Shown here: positions 3-10,740 of the stretch, piece by piece
Position numbering within the stretch: position 1 is the first letter of the stretch
How the letters are laid out: each line of letters opens with the position of its first letter
From: Ruminococcus sp.
GTDB taxonomy: Bacteria > Bacillota > Clostridia > Lachnospirales > Lachnospiraceae
Reading direction: 5' to 3'
Length of the DNA: 64,000 nt
Assembly (NCBI GenBank): GCA_023663085.1
Contig: JAMPIB010000001.1
Span: 130,833-194,832 of the forward strand
Notes under the pieces: model-generated
Database searches by the model: none
The model's input: only the letters and a program-made list of their open reading frames with translations
What the model was told of the DNA's origin: nothing
Position numbers and translations under genes: made by a program

Positions 3-473
3 AAGCAGATGTCGTTAGAAGATGTTGACAGTGAAATGATGATGCGCGATGTAAAACATCTGACGGAAGGCAGTTTTGGCATGTTGAAGGCGGCACTCCC
101 GTATCTGCGTAAAAGCTCAAATCCGAGAGTTATTTTTATGACAACGGTAGAAGGCTGCTATGGCGGGAGATATGAAAGCTTTGTCAATGCTGTGGCTAAA
201 GGAACGGTACGGAGCCTGACGTTAAATGCGGCAGCCAGATTGGCGGCGGATGGCATTACGGTGAATGCCATTTCCAAAGGGCCTATTCCCAGGGTGGAAG
301 GAATCCGGGAAGGGGATGCCGATCCGGCGGATATGCTGCCTCTTATCCCCATGAAACGTTTAGGAACAGCCAAAGATCTGGCGGAAACCATCTGTTTCTT
401 TGCCAGTGAGGAAAGCAGCTTTATCACAGGGCAGATTCTGGCAGTAGACGGCGGACTTTCTGTCGGCCTGTAA
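3..473 (+). CDS. SDR family oxidoreductase, 5'-truncated by the window edge
   Basis: This is the C-terminal part (about 156 residues) of a short-chain dehydrogenase/reductase. The frame is open back to the first bases, so the gene starts outside the window. The fold is shown by the central helix region, a VNAI stretch and a C-terminal FITGQILAVDGG. The active site is unusual: where family members have a catalytic Ser the sequence reads MTTVEG, and the YxxxK motif reads NAVAK, so Lys is kept but Tyr is replaced by Asn; the following PG is KG. A Tyr further upstream (GGRYES) could be an alternative but sits at the wrong spacing. The gene precedes a MATE exporter by about 60 bases and is probably the upstream end of the catabolic operon. 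The NAD(P)-binding half cannot be seen. Confidence 0.8.
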   Translation, partial: KQMSLEDVDSEMMMRDVKHLTEGSFGMLKAALPYLRKSSNPRVIFMTTVEGCYGGRYESFVNAVAKGTVRSLTLNAAARLAADGITVNAISKGPIPRVEGIREGDADPADMLPLIPMKRLGTAKDLAETICFFASEESSFITGQILAVDGGLSVGL

Positions 474-532
474 ATAGAAAATGGTTATGCTGCTAAAATG
501 ATACATAAAAAATGAAAAGGAAGTTTATAGTT

Positions 533-1939
533 ATGGAACAGAAATCAAATGCTTTTCTAGAACAGGAAAAGATAAGCGTTTTAATGCGTAAGTTTTCCAT
601 TCCCTGCATTATATCTTTATTGATTGCCGCGCTGTATAACATAGTGGATCAGATATTTATTGCCAATGCGGATTATCTTGGCGCCTATGGGAATGCGGCC
701 AATAATGTTGTCTTTCCCATGACAATTGTGGCTTTGGCAATTGCAGTACTCATTGGTGATGGCTGCTGTGCGTTCGTCAGCATTTGTCTGGGCGCTGATA
801 AAAAGGAGGATGCCCATAAAAGCGTGGGTTGTTCTGTGGTACTTGTCATAGTGGTCAGCATTATCTTAACGGCGCTTTTTTTCTTATTTCAGGAGCAGAT
901 ACTGACTTTTTTCGGCGGACATGTGAATGAAGAAACTTTTGTAAATGCCAAAGAGTATTTTACCTGGATCACCATAGGAATTCCGTTTTATATGTTTGGA
1001 CAGGCCATGAATCCGATCATCCGTTCGGATGGTAGTCCGCGTTTTGCCATGATATCTACAGTTGCAGGAGCCTTATTTAATGTTATTTTTGATCCCATTT
1101 GTATTTACGGTTTAAAGTGGGGCATGATGGGCGCAGCCGTAGCGACGATCGGCGGGCAGATCCTGACGGCAATACTGGCCCTCTGGTATCTTTTCCATAT
1201 GAAATCCGTAAAACTTGAAAATGTAAGTTTCAGGTTAAACGGCGGCCTGATGCGGCAGTTCCTCCCACTGGGCGTTACCAGTCTTTTGTCACAGATTTCT
1301 GTAGTGGCTTCTATGGCAGCCATGAACAATATGATCGTGAAATATGGCGCGCTGGATGCAGTCTACGGGCAGGAACAATACTCCCATATTCCTATGGCTG
1401 TACTGGGCATCGTAATGAAATTTTTCCAGATAGTCATCTCTATTTCGGTAGGACTGGCGGCAGGCTGTATTCCGATTGTAGGGTATAACGTAGGCGCGAA
1501 GCGTAATGATCGTGTCATAGAATTATTTAAACGTCTGCTGGCTTATGAATTTGCGGTCGGTTTTATTGCCATGCTGATCGTGGAATTGCTGCCGACGCAG
1601 CTGATCAACATTTTTGGCGCTGCCAATGAAAGCGCTTATTATACGGAGTTTGCCGTGAAGGCTTTCCGGGTTTATTTATGTCTGATGCCGCTGGCGACAG
1701 TCAATAAAGGAACTTTTATTTATTTGCAGTCTCTGGGGAAAGCGGTAGAGTCTTCCGCCTTGTCTATGGTGCGTGAAATACTTTTTGGGGTTGGTTTTGC
1801 CCTGCTGCTGCCTGTTTTCTTCGGGCTGGATGGCGTGCTTTATTCCATGCCGCTCGCCGATGGTCTGACTTTTATCATTGCGATAATACTGATCGTGCAT
1901 ATTATGAGAAAACTGCGTATGCCGGCAGAAAATAATTAG
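533..1939 (+). CDS. MATE family efflux transporter
   Basis: A polytopic membrane protein of about 468 residues with some 12 hydrophobic segments, matching the two-bundle MATE (multidrug and toxin extrusion) family in length and pattern. The early region contains the typical FSIPCIISLLIAALYNIVDQ start of the first helix and a later IRSDGSPRFAM loop. MATE proteins export organic compounds using a cation gradient. An ATG 21 bases upstream is in frame, but AAAAGGAAG at 515-523 sits 9 bases before 533, so 533 is preferred. Its place at the head of a catabolic operon suggests it could export a substrate, intermediate or toxic phenolic product, but the cargo cannot be read from sequence. Confidence 0.88.
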   Translation: MEQKSNAFLEQEKISVLMRKFSIPCIISLLIAALYNIVDQIFIANADYLGAYGNAANNVVFPMTIVALAIAVLIGDGCCAFVSICLGADKKEDAHKSVGCSVVLVIVVSIILTALFFLFQEQILTFFGGHVNEETFVNAKEYFTWITIGIPFYMFGQAMNPIIRSDGSPRFAMISTVAGALFNVIFDPICIYGLKWGMMGAAVATIGGQILTAILALWYLFHMKSVKLENVSFRLNGGLMRQFLPLGVTSLLSQISVVASMAAMNNMIVKYGALDAVYGQEQYSHIPMAVLGIVMKFFQIVISISVGLAAGCIPIVGYNVGAKRNDRVIELFKRLLAYEFAVGFIAMLIVELLPTQLINIFGAANESAYYTEFAVKAFRVYLCLMPLATVNKGTFIYLQSLGKAVESSALSMVREILFGVGFALLLPVFFGLDGVLYSMPLADGLTFIIAIILIVHIMRKLRMPAENN

Positions 1940-1958
1940 GATTAGGAGAGAAGAGCTT

Positions 1959-3020
1959 ATGATCTATGATGCAAATATGTATTATATACCGGAAGAACTT
2001 TTTGAAGATAAAGAACTGTTAGCCCGTTTTATTTCTGAAATTCCGGAAAAAGACGGCTGGTATGGACATACAGAAGAGATTCCCGGAACCGATGGCCTGC
2101 AGCAGATCATTCTGGAGAAACCAAAGGGATATCAGAACCTGAATTATGCCCAGCATGATTACATTCTGGAAAATCAGCTGGCCGATCTGGATCAGGCAGG
2201 TGTAGACGCCGCATTCCTGAAAACGCCGTGCTGTCAGGAATGGATGAGTCTGGAGATGTGCCGTTTCTTTAACGACCATATGGCGGCCCACGCGGCTAAG
2301 AGCGGTGGACGTCTGATCCCGCTGGCTGTGGTGCCTCCGTATGGCACGCCGGAAAATATTGCGGAACTTGTACGCTGCCATGATGAACTTCATTTTCAGA
2401 CGGTGCAGTTGTCGGCACATTATGAAGATGCTTATCTCGATGATGAACGCTTTGCCGTTTTTTTTGAAAAATTAAATGAAATGGGCATGAATGCCTATGT
2501 ACACCATACGCCGGTGCCGGTTGAATATCAGTCATTTTATGAATATAACAATGTCCGCAGGTCTTATGGACGAAATGTGGATCAGGGTCTGGCGGTCAGC
2601 AGAGAACTTTTCAGCGGATTTTTTGATAAATATCCGAATGTAAAGCTTGTCCATTCGCAGTTAGGGGGCGGCTTCTTTGCTCTGAGTAATATGATGTTCC
2701 CCAGAAAAGCAAAGAAGGAAACGGTAAGCCGCTTTAAGTCCGATAATGAGAAAGTGGTCGAGCAGTTTAAAAACAATATCTATTTTGAGATGTCCCATGC
2801 CCAGCCGTGGGGAAAGATCCAGTTAGAGTGCGCGGTTAAGGTATTGGGAGCGGATCACATTCTGTTTGGTACTTCTTATCCGGTCAGGAAAGAGTGGCTT
2901 CTGGAGGGCGTGCAGTTTATCCGGGATCTGGATATTTCGGAGGAAGAGAAAGCCCTGATCCTGGGCGGCAATGCGCAGCGCCTGTATTTAAATAATAACG
3001 GCAAAAATGGGGGATTATGA
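1959..3020 (+). CDS. Amidohydrolase_2-like protein with degenerate metal site
   Basis: A 353-residue protein with the TIM-barrel features of the amidohydrolase_2 group (ACMSD and gamma-resorcylate decarboxylase relatives). Visible signs are [13 protein letters not shown], the strand-end histidines in VHHTPVP and [11 protein letters not shown], the terminal [10 protein letters not shown] and GGNAQRLYL. The N-terminal metal-binding HxH that normally follows the first strand is absent: the equivalent reads DANMYYIP. The usual C-terminal catalytic Asp in FG(S/T)DYP is Ser here. It may therefore work without a metal, bind another cofactor, or not be an enzyme. It overlaps the next gene by four bases (ATGA), so the two are translationally coupled. 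Family members hydrolyse lactones or decarboxylate ring acids, which fits the operon. Confidence 0.75.
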
Positions 3021-4123
3021 TGAGCAAGATTAGTGAAATGACCAGGGATTCCTGGATAAAAAGCACTTTTCCTGAATGGGGAACCTGGCTGGTGGAGGAT
3101 ATCGAGAATGCAGTAGTGCCTGCCGGTAATGTGTCCATGTGGTGGCTTGGATGTACCGGTATCTGGTTCAAGACGCCGGGCGGCGCTAATCTGCCAGTGG
3201 ATTTGTGGTGCGGTAATGGAAAACGTACCCATGGGGATGGCAAGATGAAAGTCGGACATCAGATGGCCAATATGTGTGGCGGACGCGCCATGCAGCCGAA
3301 TCTGCGGAATGTGCCTTTCGTGATCGATCCGTTTGCCTTTCAGCAGGTGGACGCGGTACTGGCAACACATTACCATCAGGATCACATGTCTGCGGAATGG
3401 GCGGCGCATGTGATCAATTCTGGCATGACGACTGTAGATGCAGATGGAAAAGAAATCCCGGTGCCTTTCATAGGGCCGCTCAAATCAGTAGAGACCTGGG
3501 TGAAGTGGGGAGTTCCCAGAGAACGTTGTCAGGTGGTAAGACCGGGTGATGTGATCAGGGTGAAAGATATCGAGATTGTTGTTCTGGACAGCTTTGACCG
3601 TACCTGTATCGTGACGACGGATTCTACGGGTGAAGACAGAGAAGAACTGGCCGGTAAATGTCCGACCGATATGGATGACAAGGCGGTAAATTATCTGTTA
3701 AAAACGCCCGGCGGCAATATCTATCATTCCGGCGATTCTCACTTTTCCATCTATTTTGCGAAGCATGGCAAGGATCATGATATTGATGTGGCGTTTGCTT
3801 CTTTTGGTGAGAATCCGATCGGTATGCAGGATAAGATGACGTCTGTGGATGTACTCCGCATGGCGGAAAATCTGCAATGTAAAGTGGTAGTGCCGATACA
3901 TTGGGACGTATGGACGAATTTCCAGGCGGACTGTGAGGAAATCAGACTCCTGTATGACTTTAAAAAAGATCGGAATGAATATAAGTTCCATCCGTTTTTC
4001 TGGCAGGTAGGCGGGCAGTACACATATCCGATGGATAAGGATAAGATTTATTATCATCATCGGCGTGGATTTGAGGACTGCTTTGAAGCGTCGCAGAATA
4101 TTCCGTTCCGTTCCTGTCTATAG
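3017..4123 (+). CDS. ulaG: UlaG-type metallo-beta-lactamase-fold lactonase
   Basis: A 368-residue metallo-beta-lactamase-fold protein that resembles L-ascorbate-6-phosphate lactonase (UlaG, about 354 residues) along its length. The metal motif HYHQDH is at residues 118-123; other signs are the N-terminal WWLGCTGIW, the insert [12 protein letters not shown], and the later HSGDSHFS and [10 protein letters not shown]. UlaG opens the lactone ring of ascorbate 6-phosphate in the cytoplasm. The start overlaps the upstream stop (ATGA), preceded by GGGGGATT. Its neighbour is UlaE-like, which supports a sugar-acid lactone pathway. No ascorbate PTS gene (UlaABC) or UlaD decarboxylase is in view and a sugar kinase follows, so the true substrate may be a related lactone rather than ascorbate 6-phosphate. 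Confidence 0.85.
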
Positions 4124-4157
4124 GAAAGAACTGTTCTGTAGGACGGAGGGGATTATT

Positions 4158-5003
4158 ATGAAGAGTTACAGTCTGGGATTGTATGAAAAGGCGATGCCCG
4201 GAACACTGACCTGGGAGGAGAAACTGCTGACTGCCAGGGAGGCCGGTTTTGATTACATAGAGATCAGTATTGACGAATCAGAGGAGAAACAGAGCCGCCT
4301 GCAATGGACGAAAAAACAGCGGGCGGATCTGGTAGCCTCTATGGAAGAATATGAACTTCCTATCCGCTCTATGTGTTTAAGCGCTCATAGAAAATATCCG
4401 TTGGGCAGCAGGGACGCAGATGTGAGAAAGCGCGGAATGGAGATCATGGAACAGGCGATTGAGCTGGCCGATGATCTGGGAATACGCACGATCCAGCTGG
4501 CCGGCTATGATGTGTATTATGAAGAGACTTCTGCGGATACGAGACGATATTTTGTAAATAACCTTGTAAGGGCGGCGCAGTTAGCGGCGGATAAGGGTAT
4601 TTTACTTGGATTTGAGACGATGGAAACTCCGTTTATGGACACGGTGGAAAAAGCAATGGAGTATGTCAATCTGGTTAATTCTCCGTATCTTGGAGTATAT
4701 CCGGACATTGGAAATCTTACGAATGCCGCCAAATTGTATGGGACAAGCGTTACCGGAGATCTGGGTAAAGGAGCAGGGCATATCATAGCCATGCATTTAA
4801 AGGAAACGATTCCCGGCGTTTACCGGGAAGTTCCTTTTGGAACCGGGCATGTCGATTTTGAGATGGCGCTGCAGAAAGCCATTCAGTTGGGAGTATTCCG
4901 TTTTGTTACAGAGCTGTGGTATGTCGGACAGAAGGACTGGACTGCCGATGTGCAGGATGCGGCGCAGAGGATGAAAATGATTTTAGAACAGCAGTTACAA
5001 TAG
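4158..5003 (+). CDS. ulaE: L-ribulose-5-phosphate 3-epimerase family protein (UlaE/SgbU-like)
   Basis: A 281-residue xylose-isomerase-like TIM barrel. All four metal-binding positions expected in UlaE are visible in order: Glu in GFETMET, Asp in YPDIGN, His in AMHLKET and Glu in VTELWYV. UlaE interconverts L-xylulose 5-phosphate and L-ribulose 5-phosphate, feeding the pentose phosphate pathway. An in-frame open stretch reaches back to 4065, inside the UlaG gene, but the ATG at 4158 has a GGAGGGG site just upstream and gives the family N-terminus (KSYSLGLYEKAMP). It sits between the lactonase and an FGGY kinase, consistent with catabolism of a sugar acid to a pentulose phosphate. Confidence 0.88.
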   Translation: MKSYSLGLYEKAMPGTLTWEEKLLTAREAGFDYIEISIDESEEKQSRLQWTKKQRADLVASMEEYELPIRSMCLSAHRKYPLGSRDADVRKRGMEIMEQAIELADDLGIRTIQLAGYDVYYEETSADTRRYFVNNLVRAAQLAADKGILLGFETMETPFMDTVEKAMEYVNLVNSPYLGVYPDIGNLTNAAKLYGTSVTGDLGKGAGHIIAMHLKETIPGVYREVPFGTGHVDFEMALQKAIQLGVFRFVTELWYVGQKDWTADVQDAAQRMKMILEQQLQ

Positions 5004-5039
5004 TGTAAAGGTTGAATAAATATTTGGGAATCTTGCAAT

Positions 5040-6503
5040 ATGAATATTTTAATTATTGATGCAGGCTCGTCGAGCATGAGAGGGGTTCTTTTTACAGAAA
5101 AGGGAAAAATCATAGAACAAAAGCAGATAAAATACCATCCATTTTATGGGGAAAATGGTATTTTTGTAGAACAGGATCCGTTAGAGTATAAAGAAGCATT
5201 ATGGGAAATTATGGAATGGACGGGTGAAATTGTAACGGGTCTTTCAGAAGCCGTAGACGCAATTGGACTGACCGCACAGCGTTCTTCCTGTATCTGCATG
5301 GACTATGAGGGGAATCCTATAGGAAATGCCATTTGCTGGCAGGATAAGCGTACTATACCGATATGCAGGATGCTTGAAGCATATAATGAGGATATTTTTG
5401 ATAAGAGCGGAGCCTTGGTCAATTCTGTGTTTCTGGGGCCCAAATTGACCTGGATACGCGAAAACCGCGGCGAAGTATATAAAAGAGTGTGGAAGTTTAT
5501 GACGATTGCTGATTATTTGATGTACATACTGACGGGGAATATCTGTACAGATGATACATATGCCAGCCGCACACACTTGATGAATCTGGAGACTCGTGCG
5601 TGGGATTCCTGCCTGTTGGATTATTTTTCTGTGGAAAGACAGAAGCTGTGTGAGATTTATCCGGTCGGAAACTGTATGGGGGTTTTACGCCGTGAAGCGG
5701 CAATGCTTACCGGCATGGAAGAAGGGATCCCTGTCTATTCCGCAGGCGGCGACCAACAGTGTGCGTTGATAGGGCAGGGAGTTTTTAATGAGGGCGATGT
5801 ATCGGTCACGCTGGGGACGGGAGAATTTATTGCCATGCAGTTAAAGCAATTACCTGTGCAGCGAAAATCACGGGTAATTTATAATACTTCTGCAATAAAG
5901 GGGGAGTATATTGTTGAATTTGGAGCAGTCACATGTTGTTCCGCATTAGATTGGTTCATGAGGGAGTTTTATCCGGATATGCGCTATGAAAATATCGGGC
6001 GTAGTCTTACGGAATCGAAACCCGGAGCATCCGGCTGTATAGCGCTGCCATATTTTCAGGGACGTATTACACCGGATCATAATAACAGTGCAAAGGCTGT
6101 TTTTGCAGGAATATCGCTGAATACTACAAAGGCTGACCTGCTGCGGGCCTTTGTAGAGGGAATCGGCATAGAAACCTGTCAGGGAATTGGGGAGATGCCG
6201 CTTGAACCCGGACGGATCCTGGTGAACGGTGGTCTGACCCATACATCGGAAATATGCCGGATTCTGGCGGATACTCTGGGACATCCAATCTATGTCAGTA
6301 ATGAGCAGGATGCCACGGCTTTGGGAGCATATATTGTAACTATGGTCTCTATGGGGTGTTTTCCGGATGAAGAGAATGCCTATCAAAATATACGCAGCAA
6401 CCCTTTGACAGATATTTTCATGCCCAGACAGGAAAATACAGAAATCTATCAAAGACTAAAAGAAGAAAATTGTGAGTTATATAACCGTATATATGGAAAT
6501 TAG
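5040..6503 (+). CDS. FGGY-family carbohydrate kinase
   Basis: A 487-residue kinase of the FGGY family (xylulokinase, gluconokinase and rhamnulokinase relatives). The N-terminal phosphate-binding strand reads IIDAGSSSMRGVLF; the second domain has SAGGDQQCALIGQG, VTLGTGEF and VNGGLTHTSEICRI, the ATP-binding part of the ASKHA fold. These enzymes phosphorylate sugars or polyols after non-PTS uptake. Next to UlaG- and UlaE-like genes, likely substrates are L-xylulose, 3-keto-L-gulonate or a relative, but specificity cannot be assigned by eye. There is no strong Shine-Dalgarno site before the ATG (only GGGAA about ten bases upstream). Confidence 0.87.
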   Translation: MNILIIDAGSSSMRGVLFTEKGKIIEQKQIKYHPFYGENGIFVEQDPLEYKEALWEIMEWTGEIVTGLSEAVDAIGLTAQRSSCICMDYEGNPIGNAICWQDKRTIPICRMLEAYNEDIFDKSGALVNSVFLGPKLTWIRENRGEVYKRVWKFMTIADYLMYILTGNICTDDTYASRTHLMNLETRAWDSCLLDYFSVERQKLCEIYPVGNCMGVLRREAAMLTGMEEGIPVYSAGGDQQCALIGQGVFNEGDVSVTLGTGEFIAMQLKQLPVQRKSRVIYNTSAIKGEYIVEFGAVTCCSALDWFMREFYPDMRYENIGRSLTESKPGASGCIALPYFQGRITPDHNNSAKAVFAGISLNTTKADLLRAFVEGIGIETCQGIGEMPLEPGRILVNGGLTHTSEICRILADTLGHPIYVSNEQDATALGAYIVTMVSMGCFPDEENAYQNIRSNPLTDIFMPRQENTEIYQRLKEENCELYNRIYGN

Positions 6504-6525
6504 AGAGAAAGGCACAGGTTAATAA

Positions 6526-7584
6526 ATGAATATAGAAAAAAAGGTTCTGGCAGGATTAGAAAAGTGTTATTCCATAGCGCCGTTACATTATCAGAATGAA
6601 GATTTTTTTCTGGTGGCGGCTGAAAAACAGGATCCCTGCTATTTATTTAATATGCAGGGAGAAATTGTAGATACCGTATGGGAAGGGCCGGGCGGCGTCA
6701 TGAGTATGGTGCAGGTGCCGGGCACAGATGGACAGTTTCTGGCAACGCAGAAGTTCTATTCACCGAATGATTCCAAAGAAGCTAAAATTGTAATTGTTAC
6801 GCCAAAGAATGGGACATGGGAAGTACGCACATTGGTGAATCTGCCGCATGTGCATCGATTTGATATTTTAAATCGGGGCAAGGGCCAGTACCTGATCGCC
6901 TGTACGCTAAAGTCGGGACATGAGTATAAAGATGACTGGAGTCAGCCGGGGAAAATCTATGTTGCGGAACTGCCGCAGGATTTGTCTGGTTTTCATGAGG
7001 AAAATCAGTTGGAGCTGACAGTATTAAAAGATCAGATGTTGAAAAATCATGGCTATTATAAGGTGATAGAGGATGGCGAGGAAACAGCTGTTATTTCAGC
7101 GGATTGCGGTGTTTTTCAAGTGGTTCCACCCAGGGAGCGGGGAGGCGCATGGGACGTCAGGTGTCTGCTTAAGGAAAGTGCCAGCGATGCGGTATTGGTG
7201 GATCTGAATCAGGACGGAGAAAAGGAATTATGTGTACTGGCTCCTTTTCACGGGCCGGAAATTAAAATTTATGAGAAGAAGAGCGACAAATTTGTACTGG
7301 TTTATCAGTATGAAAAAGATGCGGAATTTACGCATGCCATTTATGGCGGCGCGTTTGGAAAGGGGCAGGCATTCATCGTCGGCCACCGCAAGGGAGAGCG
7401 GGATCTGCTTTTATTTTATTATGATGCGGTGAGCGGGGAGTATAAATATCTGTTGCTGGATCATGACTGCGGCCCAGCCAATGTACATCGCATAAGCCGG
7501 GAGGGCCGGAATGACAGGGAAATTATCATATCAGCCAACAGGGAGACGAATGAAATTGCGATGTACAGTATAACAGAGGTTTAA
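6526..7584 (+). CDS. Uncharacterised cytoplasmic beta-propeller-like protein
   Basis: A 352-residue protein I do not recognise as a named family. It is rich in short beta-strand repeats typical of FG-GAP/VCBS or lactonase-like beta-propellers; examples are VDLNQDGEKELCVLAP, which looks like a calcium-binding DxNxDG blade loop, and HRFDILNRGKGQYLIA. There is no signal peptide or membrane segment, so it should be cytoplasmic, unusual for such propellers, which are mostly secreted. It lies 22 bases after the FGGY kinase and just before the decarboxylase genes, with a GAGAGAAAGG site upstream of its ATG. It may be an enzyme (lactonase or isomerase type) or a substrate-binding scaffold for the pathway. 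Confidence 0.55.
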   Translation: MNIEKKVLAGLEKCYSIAPLHYQNEDFFLVAAEKQDPCYLFNMQGEIVDTVWEGPGGVMSMVQVPGTDGQFLATQKFYSPNDSKEAKIVIVTPKNGTWEVRTLVNLPHVHRFDILNRGKGQYLIACTLKSGHEYKDDWSQPGKIYVAELPQDLSGFHEENQLELTVLKDQMLKNHGYYKVIEDGEETAVISADCGVFQVVPPRERGGAWDVRCLLKESASDAVLVDLNQDGEKELCVLAPFHGPEIKIYEKKSDKFVLVYQYEKDAEFTHAIYGGAFGKGQAFIVGHRKGERDLLLFYYDAVSGEYKYLLLDHDCGPANVHRISREGRNDREIIISANRETNEIAMYSITEV

Positions 7585-7632
7585 CAGTGTAGAGAAAACG
7601 AAAAAAACGCAGACGCAAAAAAGGATATGTAT

Positions 7633-7989
7633 ATGGAATCGGAGATCATATTGTCATTTGCCAAAATAGCGATATCTAAAAATTTTTTAGGGAATGATAT
7701 TCTTATTACTGTCAGGGGAGGTGATGAACCTCACATAGGAACAGTTGTACTTGCAGTTCCCAGACCATCGCTGACAGGAGATGGAACTGTCAGTACGACA
7801 TCTTCCGTATTGAATGTAATTGGCCATAAAGATGAAGATATTTGCCGTATCCTTGCAGAGAAAGCATCAAAAAGGTATGGAGTGCCGGCTGTTTGTGTCG
7901 GTGGTTTTCATATCGATGGTATGAGTGCTGAGCAGATCAGGGAAGTAGTGACGGCAGTCAGGAATTTTGATATAGATTGTATGAGGTGA
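7633..7989 (+). CDS. lpdD: LpdD-like prenylated-flavin decarboxylase accessory protein
   Basis: A 118-residue protein matching the small LpdD partner found with gallate/phenolic acid decarboxylases. Visible signs are GNDILITVRGGDEPHIG, AVPRPSL, STTSSVLNVIGHKDE and a GVPAVCVGGFHIDG stretch. LpdD is thought to help deliver or mature the prenyl-FMN cofactor for LpdC. The call rests on these motifs together with the adjacent UbiD- and UbiX-type genes, the same trio as in Lactiplantibacillus gallate decarboxylase. The ATG at 7633 has AAAAAGG eight bases upstream and is preferred to the ATG at 7627. It ends six bases before the decarboxylase gene. Confidence 0.75.
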   Translation: MESEIILSFAKIAISKNFLGNDILITVRGGDEPHIGTVVLAVPRPSLTGDGTVSTTSSVLNVIGHKDEDICRILAEKASKRYGVPAVCVGGFHIDGMSAEQIREVVTAVRNFDIDCMR

Positions 7990-7995
7990 AAGAAT

Positions 7996-9474
7996 ATGAA
8001 TAACAGGACAGATATACGGGATCTCAGGACTGCCATTGCGTTCCTGAAGACACAGAAAGGGCAGTATGTGGAGACGGATGTGGAAGTAAACCCGGAGGCG
8101 GAGCTTTCCGGTGTGTACCGTTATGTAGGGGCAGGCGGGACAGTTATGCGCCCTACCACTATTGAAGGCCCGGCTATGATGTTTAACAACATTAAAGGAT
8201 TTGATGATGCGCGGGTAGTGATTGGGATGTTGGCCAGCCGTAAACGTGTCGGTATGCTCTTTGGATGTGAACCGGAACGGCTTGGATGGCTGCTGCATGA
8301 CTGCGTTGAGCGTGCAGTAGCACCGGTGGTCCTTGAATCCCCGGCGCCCTGTCAGGAGGTTGTCCATCTGGCGACGGAGCCTGACTTTGATCTGCATAAG
8401 CTGGTGCCAGCGCCGACTAATACCCCGACAGACGCAGGGCCATATATTACTTTGGGTATGTGTTACGCAACCCACCCCGATACAGGAGAATCTGACGTTA
8501 CGATTCACAGGATGTGTATCCAGTCGAAAGATGAGTTATCAATCTTTTTACAGCCCGGTTCCAGACATATCGGCGCTATGGCGGAAAGAGCGGAAGAACT
8601 GGGGCAGAACCTGCCGATTTCCATCAGTATCGGTGTAGATCCGGCTATTGAAATCACATCATGCTTCGAGCCGCCGACTACCCCCCTTGGATTCAATGAA
8701 CTTTCTATTGCGGGCGCTTTGCGGGAACATCCGGTAGAACTGGTGAAATGCAAAACGGTTAAAGAAAATGCCATAGCCAATGCGGAATATGTGATCGAGG
8801 GAGAAATTATTACCGGACGCCGTATTGTAGAAGACCAGAATTCCCACACGGGATTTGCGATGCCGGAGTTTCCGGGGTACAGCGGCCGTGCAAGCACTGA
8901 AACATGGCTTCTCAAGGTTCATGCGGTTACTCATAGAAAGCATCCGATCATGCAGACCTGTATCGGCCCCAGCGATGAACATTTAAATATGGCCGGCATA
9001 CCGACAGAAGCAAGTATTATCGGTATGATAGAAAAAGCGTTGCCCGGTAAAGTGAAGAATGTATATGCGCACAGATCGGGATGTGGAAAATATATGGCCG
9101 TCCTTCAGGTTGCCAAGAAAGTACATACCGATGAGGGAAAACAGAGACAGGCCGCGTTGCTTGCATTTTCCGCGTTCCCGGAACTTAAGCATGTTATCCT
9201 GGTGGATGATGATGTGGATCTTTTTGACTCTGATGATGTTTTATGGGCGATGAATACCAGATTCCAAGGAGATAAGGATATTATCACGATACCGGGTGTA
9301 CGCTGTCATCCGCTCGATCCTTCATCATCTCCGGAATATGCAGATTCTATCAGCGATGTGGGGATTAGTTGTAAGACAATCTATGACTGCACAGTTCCCT
9401 TCCAATTAAAGGAGCATTTCAAGAGAGCGGCCTTTCTTGCAGTTGATCCGTATCACTGGCTGAAGGAATGGTAA
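7996..9474 (+). CDS. lpdC: UbiD-family prenyl-FMN-dependent decarboxylase (LpdC-like)
   Basis: A 492-residue UbiD-family enzyme. It has the N-terminal DLRTAIAFL start, a VESPAPCQEVVH region, NEL SIAGALRE and the conserved EFPGYSGRAS and ILVDDDVDLFD blocks. UbiD enzymes use prenylated FMN to decarboxylate unsaturated or aromatic carboxylic acids reversibly. Length and context (LpdD before, UbiX after) fit the gallate/protocatechuate-type subgroup; the substrate itself is not determined. The ribosome site GGTGAAAG precedes the ATG. It is the likely central enzyme of this operon, releasing CO2 from an acid produced or imported by the neighbours. Confidence 0.85.
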   Translation: MNNRTDIRDLRTAIAFLKTQKGQYVETDVEVNPEAELSGVYRYVGAGGTVMRPTTIEGPAMMFNNIKGFDDARVVIGMLASRKRVGMLFGCEPERLGWLLHDCVERAVAPVVLESPAPCQEVVHLATEPDFDLHKLVPAPTNTPTDAGPYITLGMCYATHPDTGESDVTIHRMCIQSKDELSIFLQPGSRHIGAMAERAEELGQNLPISISIGVDPAIEITSCFEPPTTPLGFNELSIAGALREHPVELVKCKTVKENAIANAEYVIEGEIITGRRIVEDQNSHTGFAMPEFPGYSGRASTETWLLKVHAVTHRKHPIMQTCIGPSDEHLNMAGIPTEASIIGMIEKALPGKVKNVYAHRSGCGKYMAVLQVAKKVHTDEGKQRQAALLAFSAFPELKHVILVDDDVDLFDSDDVLWAMNTRFQGDKDIITIPGVRCHPLDPSSSPEYADSISDVGISCKTIYDCTVPFQLKEHFKRAAFLAVDPYHWLKEW

Positions 9475-9533
9475 TCTGATCATTGTGGGGGATATGGGTA
9501 AAAAGCAGGGAAAATGCTGACAGGAGATAGTTT

Positions 9534-10169
9534 ATGAGAATTGCTGTACTTGCTGGGAATATTGCAAATTATATTCAGAGAAGGCTTCTTGAAGGAATTG
9601 TAAAATATGCAGAAACACAAAGTATCAATATTGATGTGTTCAGCTGCCATGGTGATATGTATGAGAACAGATACAGATTGGCTATGAGGCATGTAAAAGC
9701 CTCGTTGAAAAAGAACCGATACAGATTCGGAAGTTTAGGGTAAAACATCTTTTCCGGGGGAGAGTGTAAAAAGGACGGTGTCCGGATTGGTATTTTTTTT
9801 GCAGATATTAATAAATTGAAGCAGGTAAACGATAGATACGGACATGAAGAGGGTGATTTTTATATCAGGTCAGTCGCTGACTACATGAGTCAATTAAAAA
9901 AAGAAGGACAGATCCTCATGCGTTATGGAGGCGATGAATTTGTAGTTATGGGAAAAGTAATAGAGGGTAATGAGTTTACCGGACTGATAGAGACGTTGAA
10001 TCCAAGGCTGAAAGAATACAGGAAAAAGTCGAAAAAAGCATATGAGATGAGTGTAAGTGTAGGATTCAGGTCGGTTGAGATTACAAAAGATTTCAAACTC
10101 GGAAGCCTCATAGAAGCCGCGGATTACGAAATGTATAAAATGAAAAAGGGGACGGACAGCAATGGATAA
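9534..10169 (+). pseudogene. Broken substrate-binding-domain/GGDEF regulator
   Basis: Two pieces in the same frame belong to one decayed gene. The first (9534-9743, 69 codons) starts RIAVLAGNIANYIQRRLLEG and looks like the first strand and helix of a LacI-type periplasmic-binding domain. A stop at 9741-9743 follows. The second (readable from 9744, ending 10169) is most of a GGDEF domain: FFADINKLKQVNDRYGH, then RYGGDEFVV and a C-terminal AADYEMYKMKKG. About 200 or more residues of sensor domain are missing between them. The GGDEF core is intact, but the only start in front of it would be TTG at 9816 or similar. The tail overlaps the UbiX start by eight bases. It was probably a cyclic-di-GMP-type sensor protein for the operon. 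Confidence 0.7.
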
Positions 10170-10740
10170 AAAAAGAATTGTCGTAGCAGCCACTGGTGCC
10201 AGTGGGAGTCCTTTGTTGATACAATGTCTGAAATTAATAAAAGAAGACAGTAACTTTCGATCATGTCTGATCATGAGCGACAGTGCCAGATTGACTTTGG
10301 AGCATGAAACGGAAAAAACGGTAGAGGAATTGTACGTATTGGCGGATGAAACATTTGAATTTATGGAGATTGGAGCTGAACCCGCAAGCGGTTCTTTTAA
10401 AACCCAGGGAATGCTTATCGTACCGTGTAGTATGAAAACGCTTGCAGGTATTCATGGAGGTTATGCGGAAAATCTTATTTTGCGGACAGCAGATGTGACT
10501 TTGAAAGAACAGCGGACTCTGGTGCTGGCAGCGAGAGAAACACCTTTTAGTGCAGTTCATCTGCGCAATATGTATGAATTGTCAATGATACCCGGAGTGA
10601 GGATCATTCCGCCAATGTTGACATATTATATGAAGCCGCAGACAGTGGCGGAAATGACATATCATTGTGCGGCAAAGCTGGTAGAACCATTTGGGGTTAA
10701 AACACCGGATTATAAGCGCTGGAGAGGAATAAGAATGTAA
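10162..10740 (+). CDS. lpdB: UbiX-family flavin prenyltransferase (LpdB-like)
   Basis: A 192-residue UbiX-family protein with the phosphate/FMN-binding [10 protein letters not shown] near residue 10, MSDSARLTL, an [20 protein letters not shown] block and the [13 protein letters not shown] segment with its conserved Arg. UbiX joins dimethylallyl phosphate to FMN, making the prenyl-FMN needed by the UbiD partner at 7996. Expression should be coupled to that enzyme, but a broken GGDEF gene now lies between them. The ATG is eight bases before the end of that pseudogene frame, with AAAGGGGACGG upstream. The set LpdD-UbiD-UbiX is complete and looks functional. Confidence 0.88.

What the first reader, a model, noticed from the sequence alone, without database searches (positions are those of the whole stretch)
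533..10740. Catabolic operon joining ascorbate-type sugar-acid steps to a prenyl-FMN decarboxylase
UlaG-like lactonase, UlaE-like epimerase and an FGGY kinase sit in one directional run with a complete LpdD/UbiD/UbiX set, an amidohydrolase-like protein and a propeller-like protein. I know of no described pathway with this combination. It suggests a substrate with both a sugar lactone or uronate and a carboxylated aromatic or enoic part, or a decarboxylation acting on a sugar acid itself.
Basis: partly seen in the sequence, partly recalled or inferred. Interest (0 to 1): 0.72.

Follow-up and report, generated by a model that had tools for sequence, protein, structure and literature searches.

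The report
Propeller protein replacing vitamin C decarboxylase

Summary
The genes are real and run in one direction, but the operon starts about 12 kb upstream of the window (LysR, Opp ABC transporter, hydrolase, redox genes). The UlaG/UlaE/FGGY/propeller block and the LpdD/UbiD/UbiX block are separable modules: 0 of 94 fetched UlaG loci (up to 10 kb each side, many shorter) has UbiD. The window's species and one congener carry both, and in the congener UbiD sits in another unit beside a tannase. UbiD is most likely a gallate/protocatechuate-type decarboxylase.

The surprise is the propeller protein (6526-7584). It lies with UlaG in 80 of 94 loci, as often as UlaE (78), in 64 of them with an ascorbate PTS, and with no UlaD in any. 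Of 42 UlaG genomes, 40 have the propeller and no close UlaD; the other 2 have UlaD and no propeller. AlphaFold (pLDDT 94) gives 28 strands, read as seven blades; 23 of 29 invariant residues, including four histidines, lie on one face. [quoted passage not shown] Neither activity has been shown by experiment, and no fold comparison could be run.

The parts
9..473 (+). 3' part of an SDR dehydrogenase whose start lies upstream of the window (L002:19039-19806)
512..1939 (+). MATE efflux transporter
   Evidence: PF01554, TIGR00797 above cut-off; 78% in G057
1959..3020 (+). Amidohydro_2 protein, distant relative of 5-carboxyvanillate, gamma-resorcylate and ACMS decarboxylases
   Evidence: PF04909; PDB 4icm E 4.5e-22; 79% in G057
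3017..4123 (+). UlaG, L-ascorbate-6-phosphate lactonase
   Evidence: NF008688 596 bits; E. coli UlaG 2wyl 502 bits; metal-site residues conserved
4158..5003 (+). UlaE, L-xylulose/L-ribulose-5-phosphate 3-epimerase
   Evidence: NF009689, TIGR00542 above cut-off; E. coli UlaE 3cqh
5040..6503 (+). FGGY carbohydrate kinase, candidate 6-kinase of ascorbate or 3-keto-L-gulonate
   Evidence: PF00370/PF02782; no equivalog cut-off met; no ascorbate PTS EIIC found in this genome
6526..7584 (+). Predicted seven-bladed FG-GAP-type propeller (PROP), candidate replacement of UlaD
7627..7989 (+). LpdD-like accessory protein (PF21758)
   Evidence: 80% in G057
7996..9474 (+). UbiD-family decarboxylase, closest solved relative 3,4-dihydroxybenzoate decarboxylase
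   Evidence: PDB 5o3n/5ny5 about 629 bits; 94% in G057 beside a tannase
9523..10160 (+). Relic of a LacI-GGDEF regulator (three pieces)
   Evidence: intact in L009:2208-4076
10162..10740 (+). UbiX flavin prenyltransferase
   Evidence: TIGR00421, NF004685 above cut-off; only 49% to the UbiX beside UbiD in G057

Best explanation
The region is an ascorbate-type catabolic operon, probably for plant-derived ascorbate conjugates, joined to a separate aromatic-acid decarboxylase module. Proposed chemistry: a conjugate enters by the Opp-type ABC transporter; hydrolases free the lactone; the FGGY kinase phosphorylates it at C6 (in place of the PTS), before or after ring opening; UlaG opens the lactone to 3-keto-L-gulonate-6-phosphate; the propeller protein decarboxylates this to L-xylulose-5-phosphate (in place of UlaD), with invariant histidines on one face perhaps holding a metal; UlaE makes L-ribulose-5-phosphate; an UlaF/AraD encoded elsewhere in the genome finishes. 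UbiX makes prenyl-FMN for UbiD/LpdD, which decarboxylates a gallate/protocatechuate-type acid. Shown here: gene content, families, no match for PTS EIIC or UlaD in this draft genome, mutual exclusion of propeller and UlaD, predicted all-beta model and invariant face. Inferred: every reaction of the propeller and the kinase, the natural substrate, and the metal.
For: UlaG and UlaE meet curated cut-offs. Propeller in 80 of 94 UlaG loci, UlaE in 78, UlaD in 0; the next unexplained family is in 31 (the two UlaD-bearing regions L168 and L169 were not among the 94). Sampled genomes with UlaG at 55% or more: 18 propeller+/UlaD-, 2 propeller-/UlaD+, none with both or neither (the UlaD query's positive control is G309 and G301). 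With 22 more genomes reached from loci: 40 and 2 of 42; 3 of the 40 have 27-34% UlaD-family matches only. Gene order: L169 is UlaG-IIA-IIC-IIB-UlaD-UlaE-UlaF, L163 is UlaG-IIA-IIC-IIB-PROP-UlaF-UlaE. UlaG metal-site residues are the same in both groups and no column separates them by the test used. In PLSDB, 24 of 26 UlaG records carry UlaD and none matches the propeller query. Model pLDDT 94.1, 28 strands; 23 of 29 invariant residues on one face, p 4.7e-6. No ascorbate EIIC in G000 or G057; UlaF/AraD copy in G000 at C8:22615-23307, 85%.
Against: No activity has been measured. 3-Keto-L-gulonate-6-phosphate is a beta-keto acid that could lose CO2 without an enzyme, so an UlaD gap need not be filled. 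No solved structure matches the propeller family by sequence and no fold comparison could be run, so there is no enzymatic precedent in hand and the blade reading rests on strand counts. The exclusion rests on two UlaD+ Bacillota genomes plus PLSDB records, many of which are close relatives of each other. In G049 the propeller pairs with a 35% UlaG-like protein in a stretch with no UlaE hit, so its reaction may be wider. Many genomes are drafts, so absence of UlaD is not certain in each. The kinase is not a general stand-in: five genomes without the EIIC (G070, G853, G854, G520, G049) show no FGGY hit in the stretch fetched, and G071, G077 and L042 have both.
Confidence: 0.6

Rival explanations
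1. The propeller is not the decarboxylase: it is an isomerase, a mutarotase-like helper or a binding protein of the ascorbate pathway, and decarboxylation is spontaneous or done by another enzyme.
For: Beta-keto acids can decarboxylate without a catalyst (general knowledge). The propeller also sits beside a 35% UlaG-like protein in a stretch without an UlaE hit in G049.
Against: In the 42 genomes it is found where UlaD is missing and missing where UlaD is present; it takes UlaD's place in gene order; its invariant residues look catalytic and face one way.
Confidence: 0.25
2. One reading: UbiD with prenyl-FMN works on the sugar acid, or on the aromatic half of one substrate shared with the Ula steps, in a single joint pathway.
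For: One directional run with gaps of at most 42 bases from 1939 to the end of UbiD; both modules in one region in two species, with UbiD 94% alike. G057 has a tannase in the region, so galloyl esters of a lactone are thinkable.
Against: UbiD, LpdD and UbiX in 0 of 94 UlaG loci. In G057 UbiD is in another unit, next to the tannase and behind two LysR genes. UbiD is closest to solved 3,4-dihydroxybenzoate decarboxylases.
Confidence: 0.12
3. The FGGY kinase belongs to another sugar, and ascorbate-6-phosphate comes from another transporter.
For: The kinase meets no equivalog cut-off, FGGY homologues lie in only 15 of 94 loci, some only 25-34% alike, and several EIIC-less genomes show no FGGY in the stretch fetched.
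Against: G000 and G057 have no ascorbate EIIC, and the kinase sits between UlaE and the propeller in both. 13 of 15 FGGY-bearing loci have no EIIC in the stretch, and five further kinase-bearing genomes, G851, G852, G855, G771 and G791, have no EIIC match at all.
Confidence: 0.2

Closest known systems
E. coli ula regulon (UlaG, UlaABC, UlaD, UlaE, UlaF)
   Same: UlaG and UlaE are clear orthologues; of 94 related loci 72 keep an EIIC and 60 UlaF
   Different: no UlaD: the propeller takes its place; here also no PTS but an FGGY kinase and an Opp-type ABC transporter
yia/sgb-type pathway with LyxK (FGGY), SgbH/UlaD-type decarboxylase and SgbU (roles recalled)
   Same: FGGY kinase with an UlaE-type epimerase
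   Different: has an UlaD-type decarboxylase (some PLSDB records show UlaD next to an FGGY kinase or LyxK); here UlaG and the propeller instead
Gallate decarboxylase set LpdB/LpdC/LpdD with tannase (Lactiplantibacillus plantarum, Streptococcus gallolyticus)
   Same: UbiX, UbiD and LpdD here; a tannase_B above cut-off in the G057 cluster
   Different: no tannase hit in the window or L002 (the rest of G000 was not searched for it); embedded beside ascorbate genes; NCBIfam VdcC and VdcB cut-offs not reached
FG-GAP repeat beta-propellers (Pfam PF13517/PF01839)
   Same: 34 of 46 family members hit PF13517 weakly; 28 strands in the model, read as seven blades
   Different: compact single-domain protein, no signal-peptide-like N terminus by eye, catalytic-looking invariant residues on one face

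Membership tests
[quoted passage not shown]
   596 bits against 306
[quoted passage not shown]
   same residues as E. coli and the two UlaD+ genomes; which residues bind metal is partly recalled
[quoted passage not shown]
   needs an enzyme assay
UlaE epimerase | NF009689 / TIGR00542 above cut-off | tested here: met
   361 and 313 bits
[quoted passage not shown] coli UlaD in this genome | tested here: not met
   no match in G000; the same query finds UlaD in G309 and G301
[quoted passage not shown]
   inferred from genome context only
FG-GAP beta-propeller | seven four-stranded blades | tested here: inconclusive
   model has 28 strands, pLDDT 94.1, pTM 0.92, which fits seven blades of four; coordinates were not viewed and no fold comparison ran
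FG-GAP beta-propeller | Pfam FG-GAP hit in the window protein | tested here: not met
   window protein has no hit; best among 46 members E 2.3e-5, Pfam cut-off not shown there
Hydroxyarylic acid decarboxylase VdcC/LpdC | NF041204 above curated cut-off | tested here: not met
   459 bits against 650
Hydroxyarylic acid decarboxylase VdcC/LpdC | accompanied by UbiX and LpdD | tested here: met
FGGY kinase of known substrate | any NCBIfam equivalog cut-off reached | tested here: not met
   best XylB 273 bits against 380

The most novel reading that the evidence does not exclude
[quoted passage not shown] It would be a metal-dependent sugar-acid decarboxylase on a new fold that has displaced UlaD of the OMP decarboxylase group, and in some lineages it is coupled to a kinase-based, PTS-free route for ascorbate freed from plant conjugates.
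Probability: 0.5. Interest if true: 0.75.

Novelty: new variant of a known kind. Interest (0 to 1): 0.6.

Why it matters
If true, vitamin C breakdown in many rumen and gut anaerobes runs through an enzyme that present family libraries do not name, so pathway calls that look for UlaD miss it or report a gap. It would give a function to a conserved FG-GAP-type protein family, add a fold to known sugar-acid decarboxylases, and point to a kinase-dependent way to use ascorbate conjugates from plants.

Tried and rejected
UbiD as the sugar-acid decarboxylase: rejected as the main reading because it is in 0 of 94 UlaG loci. Recent transfer as the cause of the high UlaG identity: in nine comparisons (88-92% amino-acid identity) four-fold sites are only 22-39% identical, so the protein is held by selection. 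A residue change in UlaG that goes with the propeller: no column passed the test, with three UlaD+ sequences. Internal repeats of the propeller by profile comparison: only weak, not significant matches. Solved relatives of the propeller: none below E 0.1. Propeller on plasmids: no match. Prior description: searches of the open-access library showed no paper in their listings that ties a propeller or FG-GAP protein to ascorbate; the listings of 15, 40 and 78 were capped (20 of 365, 20 of 145, 12 of 502), and most subscription papers are not held. [quoted passage not shown] Fold comparison with the PDB was not obtained.

Counting notes. The propeller was scored by whole-genome search in 27 of the 42 and by its presence in the fetched locus in the other 15. 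Five sampled genomes with only a 33-38% UlaG-like protein (G203, G237, G422, G120, G095) have neither propeller nor UlaD, and G049 has the propeller without UlaD; these six are not in the 42. One search found no UlaD in any of 19 genomes and holds no positive of its own; the control is. Two of 26 PLSDB UlaG records (NZ_CP149363, CP131519) showed no UlaD. The 94 loci are the 80 plus 14 of the 18 regions; left out were L168 and L169 (UlaD-bearing) and L170 and L171 (duplicates). The 80 loci are the best of 289 found, so they favour this UlaG clade. The 72 rows of the propeller alignment hold 4 repeats, so 68 distinct.
Full report
What is there. The window is G000:C11:130833-194832 of an unnamed draft genome (3.4 Mb, about 91% complete). 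The run begins outside the window: L002 holds a divergent LysR gene, an SBP5/OppBCDF transporter, a small membrane protein, an MBL-fold protein, an LRR-like protein, a hydrolase-like protein, an FMN-dependent dehydrogenase, a GFO/IDH oxidoreductase and an SDR whose end is at 473 of the window (the LRR and hydrolase names are by eye). A GH3 protein and a beta-phosphoglucomutase-like protein lie just before the LysR gene.

Families. UlaG and UlaE pass curated cut-offs and match the solved E. coli enzymes. The FGGY kinase passes no equivalog cut-off. UbiD is closest to solved 3,4-dihydroxybenzoate decarboxylases but stays below the VdcC cut-off. The amidohydrolase is a distant relative of LigW/ACMSD-type decarboxylases. 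The propeller protein has no hit in Pfam or NCBIfam.

One other species of the genus was found with the cluster. Of 60 genomes sampled from the genus, 3 have an UlaG match: the window's own, G057 (92%) and a 35% relative in G049. It keeps nearly all the genes: LysR, SBP5, OppBCDF, membrane protein, MBL, LRR, hydrolase, UlaG, UlaE, FGGY, propeller, a second MBL, FMN-dehydrogenase, GFO, chemoreceptor, MATE, a 413-residue protein, amidohydrolase, SDR, UlaF/AraD, Rpe, another MATE and LpdD. Then, behind two LysR genes on the other strand, come a GPH symporter, an esterase-like protein, a subtype B tannase (NF041556 above cut-off), UbiD (94%), UbiX (49%), GH3, phosphoglucomutase and an intact LacI-GGDEF regulator. 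UbiD is about 24 kb from UlaG there. So UbiD in the relative belongs to a tannase unit. In the window's species the two parts are pushed together, with a broken remnant of that regulator between UbiD and UbiX.

The wider family. UlaG of this type was found in 80 named loci (best of 289), from Lachnospiraceae, Oribacterium, Selenomonas, Oscillospiraceae, Synergistaceae, Flexilinea and others, many with rumen or gut in the title. Of the 80, 63 have an UlaA-like EIIC, 65 UlaE, 66 the propeller, 49 UlaF and 0 UlaD. With 14 more regions from sampled genomes: propeller 80 of 94, UlaE 78, EIIC 72, UlaF 60, FGGY 15, UlaD 0, UbiD 0; the next unexplained family, a HAD hydrolase, is in 31. 64 of the 80 propeller loci have the EIIC in the stretch. 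Of the 14 loci without the propeller in the fetched stretch, the 5 whose genomes were searched (L061, L063, L065, L066, L090) all have it elsewhere.

Propeller against UlaD. In a sample of 398 Bacillota genomes, 8 have UlaG at 58% or more: 6 have the propeller and no UlaD, 2 have UlaD (60 and 53%) and no propeller. In a class sample of 393, 14 have UlaG at 55% or more, 2 of them already counted; all 12 new ones have the propeller and none has UlaD. Together 18 to 2 of 20, with none having both or neither. Adding 22 genomes reached from the fetched loci gives 40 to 2 of 42; three of the 40 have remote UlaD-family matches (27-34%). In PLSDB, 24 of 26 records with UlaG also carry UlaD (many are near copies of each other), and none of 72,556 records matches the propeller query. 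The gene order shows a straight swap: UlaG-IIA-IIC-IIB-UlaD-UlaE-UlaF in G301 and UlaG-IIA-IIC-IIB-PROP-UlaF-UlaE in G793. UlaG's metal-site residues do not differ between the two groups. Since UlaG must deliver 3-keto-L-gulonate-6-phosphate and UlaE and UlaF need a pentulose phosphate (established E. coli pathway), a decarboxylation must lie between them. The propeller is the only near-constant unassigned gene.

Structure. AlphaFold gives mean pLDDT 94.1 and pTM 0.92, with 28 strands, which I read as seven blades of four. In 72 aligned rows (68 distinct), 29 residues are invariant; 23 of them fall on one face, that of alternate loops (D-A and B-C in my labelling) and the strand ends beside them, against 136 of 349 positions (p 4.7e-6). 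They include H110, H175, H242, H270, E33, D137, N174, R288 and N338. Under my labelling this is the usual active-site face of enzymatic propellers (general knowledge). D226, D230 and E234 lie on the other face, in or at the edge of an FG-GAP-type loop that may bind calcium (inference). A metal held by the histidines is a guess.

Kinase instead of PTS. G000 and G057 have no ascorbate EIIC match anywhere, and their FGGY kinase lies between UlaE and the propeller. 13 of 15 FGGY-bearing loci have no EIIC in the stretch. FGGY-bearing G851, G852, G855, G771 and G791 have no EIIC match in the genome; G071 and G077 have FGGY beside UlaG plus an EIIC elsewhere in the genome, and L042 has both together. 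Against a general rule, G070, G853, G854, G520 and G049 lack the EIIC and show no FGGY in the stretch fetched. A GH3 homologue lies in 6 of 94 loci, and several of these have sugar ABC transporters by eye. This suggests that ascorbate is taken up as a conjugate and phosphorylated inside; the order of kinase and lactonase is open. The tannase in G057 makes galloyl conjugates possible, but no substrate is shown.

Verdict on the finding. The joint UlaG-UbiD pathway is not supported by neighbourhoods beyond two congeners. The most interesting part is the propeller protein. Tannase with gallate decarboxylase is already described in Streptococcus gallolyticus and Lactiplantibacillus plantarum (PMC4218992, PMC4600210 and PMC9794748; search listing and start of abstracts only), so that half is ordinary.

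Noticed in passing
window 9523-10160: Three in-order pieces of a LacI-GGDEF regulator, intact as a 622-residue gene in G057 (L009:2208-4076), lie between UbiD and UbiX; the gene is broken here.
   Followed up: partly
window 3017-4123; L011-L090: UlaG is 87-92% identical across distant phyla while UlaE and the propeller in the same loci are mostly 45-65%; four-fold sites in nine comparisons are near random. Why UlaG is so strongly held is unexplained.
   Followed up: partly
L008:10189-12478 (G049): A 35% UlaG-like protein sits next to a 35% propeller relative in an operon with RbsABC-like genes (by eye), suggesting that the lactonase-propeller pair also serves another sugar acid.
   Followed up: partly
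window 1959-3020: The amidohydrolase begins [13 protein letters not shown] where relatives carry an HxH metal motif (recalled, by eye), so its metal site may differ.
   Followed up: no
L002:4180-6523: A GH3 protein with a KHFPGDG...DHH motif followed by a beta-phosphoglucomutase-like gene, also paired in G057, hints at a glycoside phosphorylase route.
   Followed up: no
31 of 94 UlaG loci, e.g. L013:13362-14066: A HAD-family hydrolase (by eye) is the next most common unexplained neighbour of UlaG.
   Followed up: no
window 10162-10740: UbiX here is only 49% identical to the UbiX beside the 94% identical UbiD in G057, so it may have come from another source.
   Followed up: no
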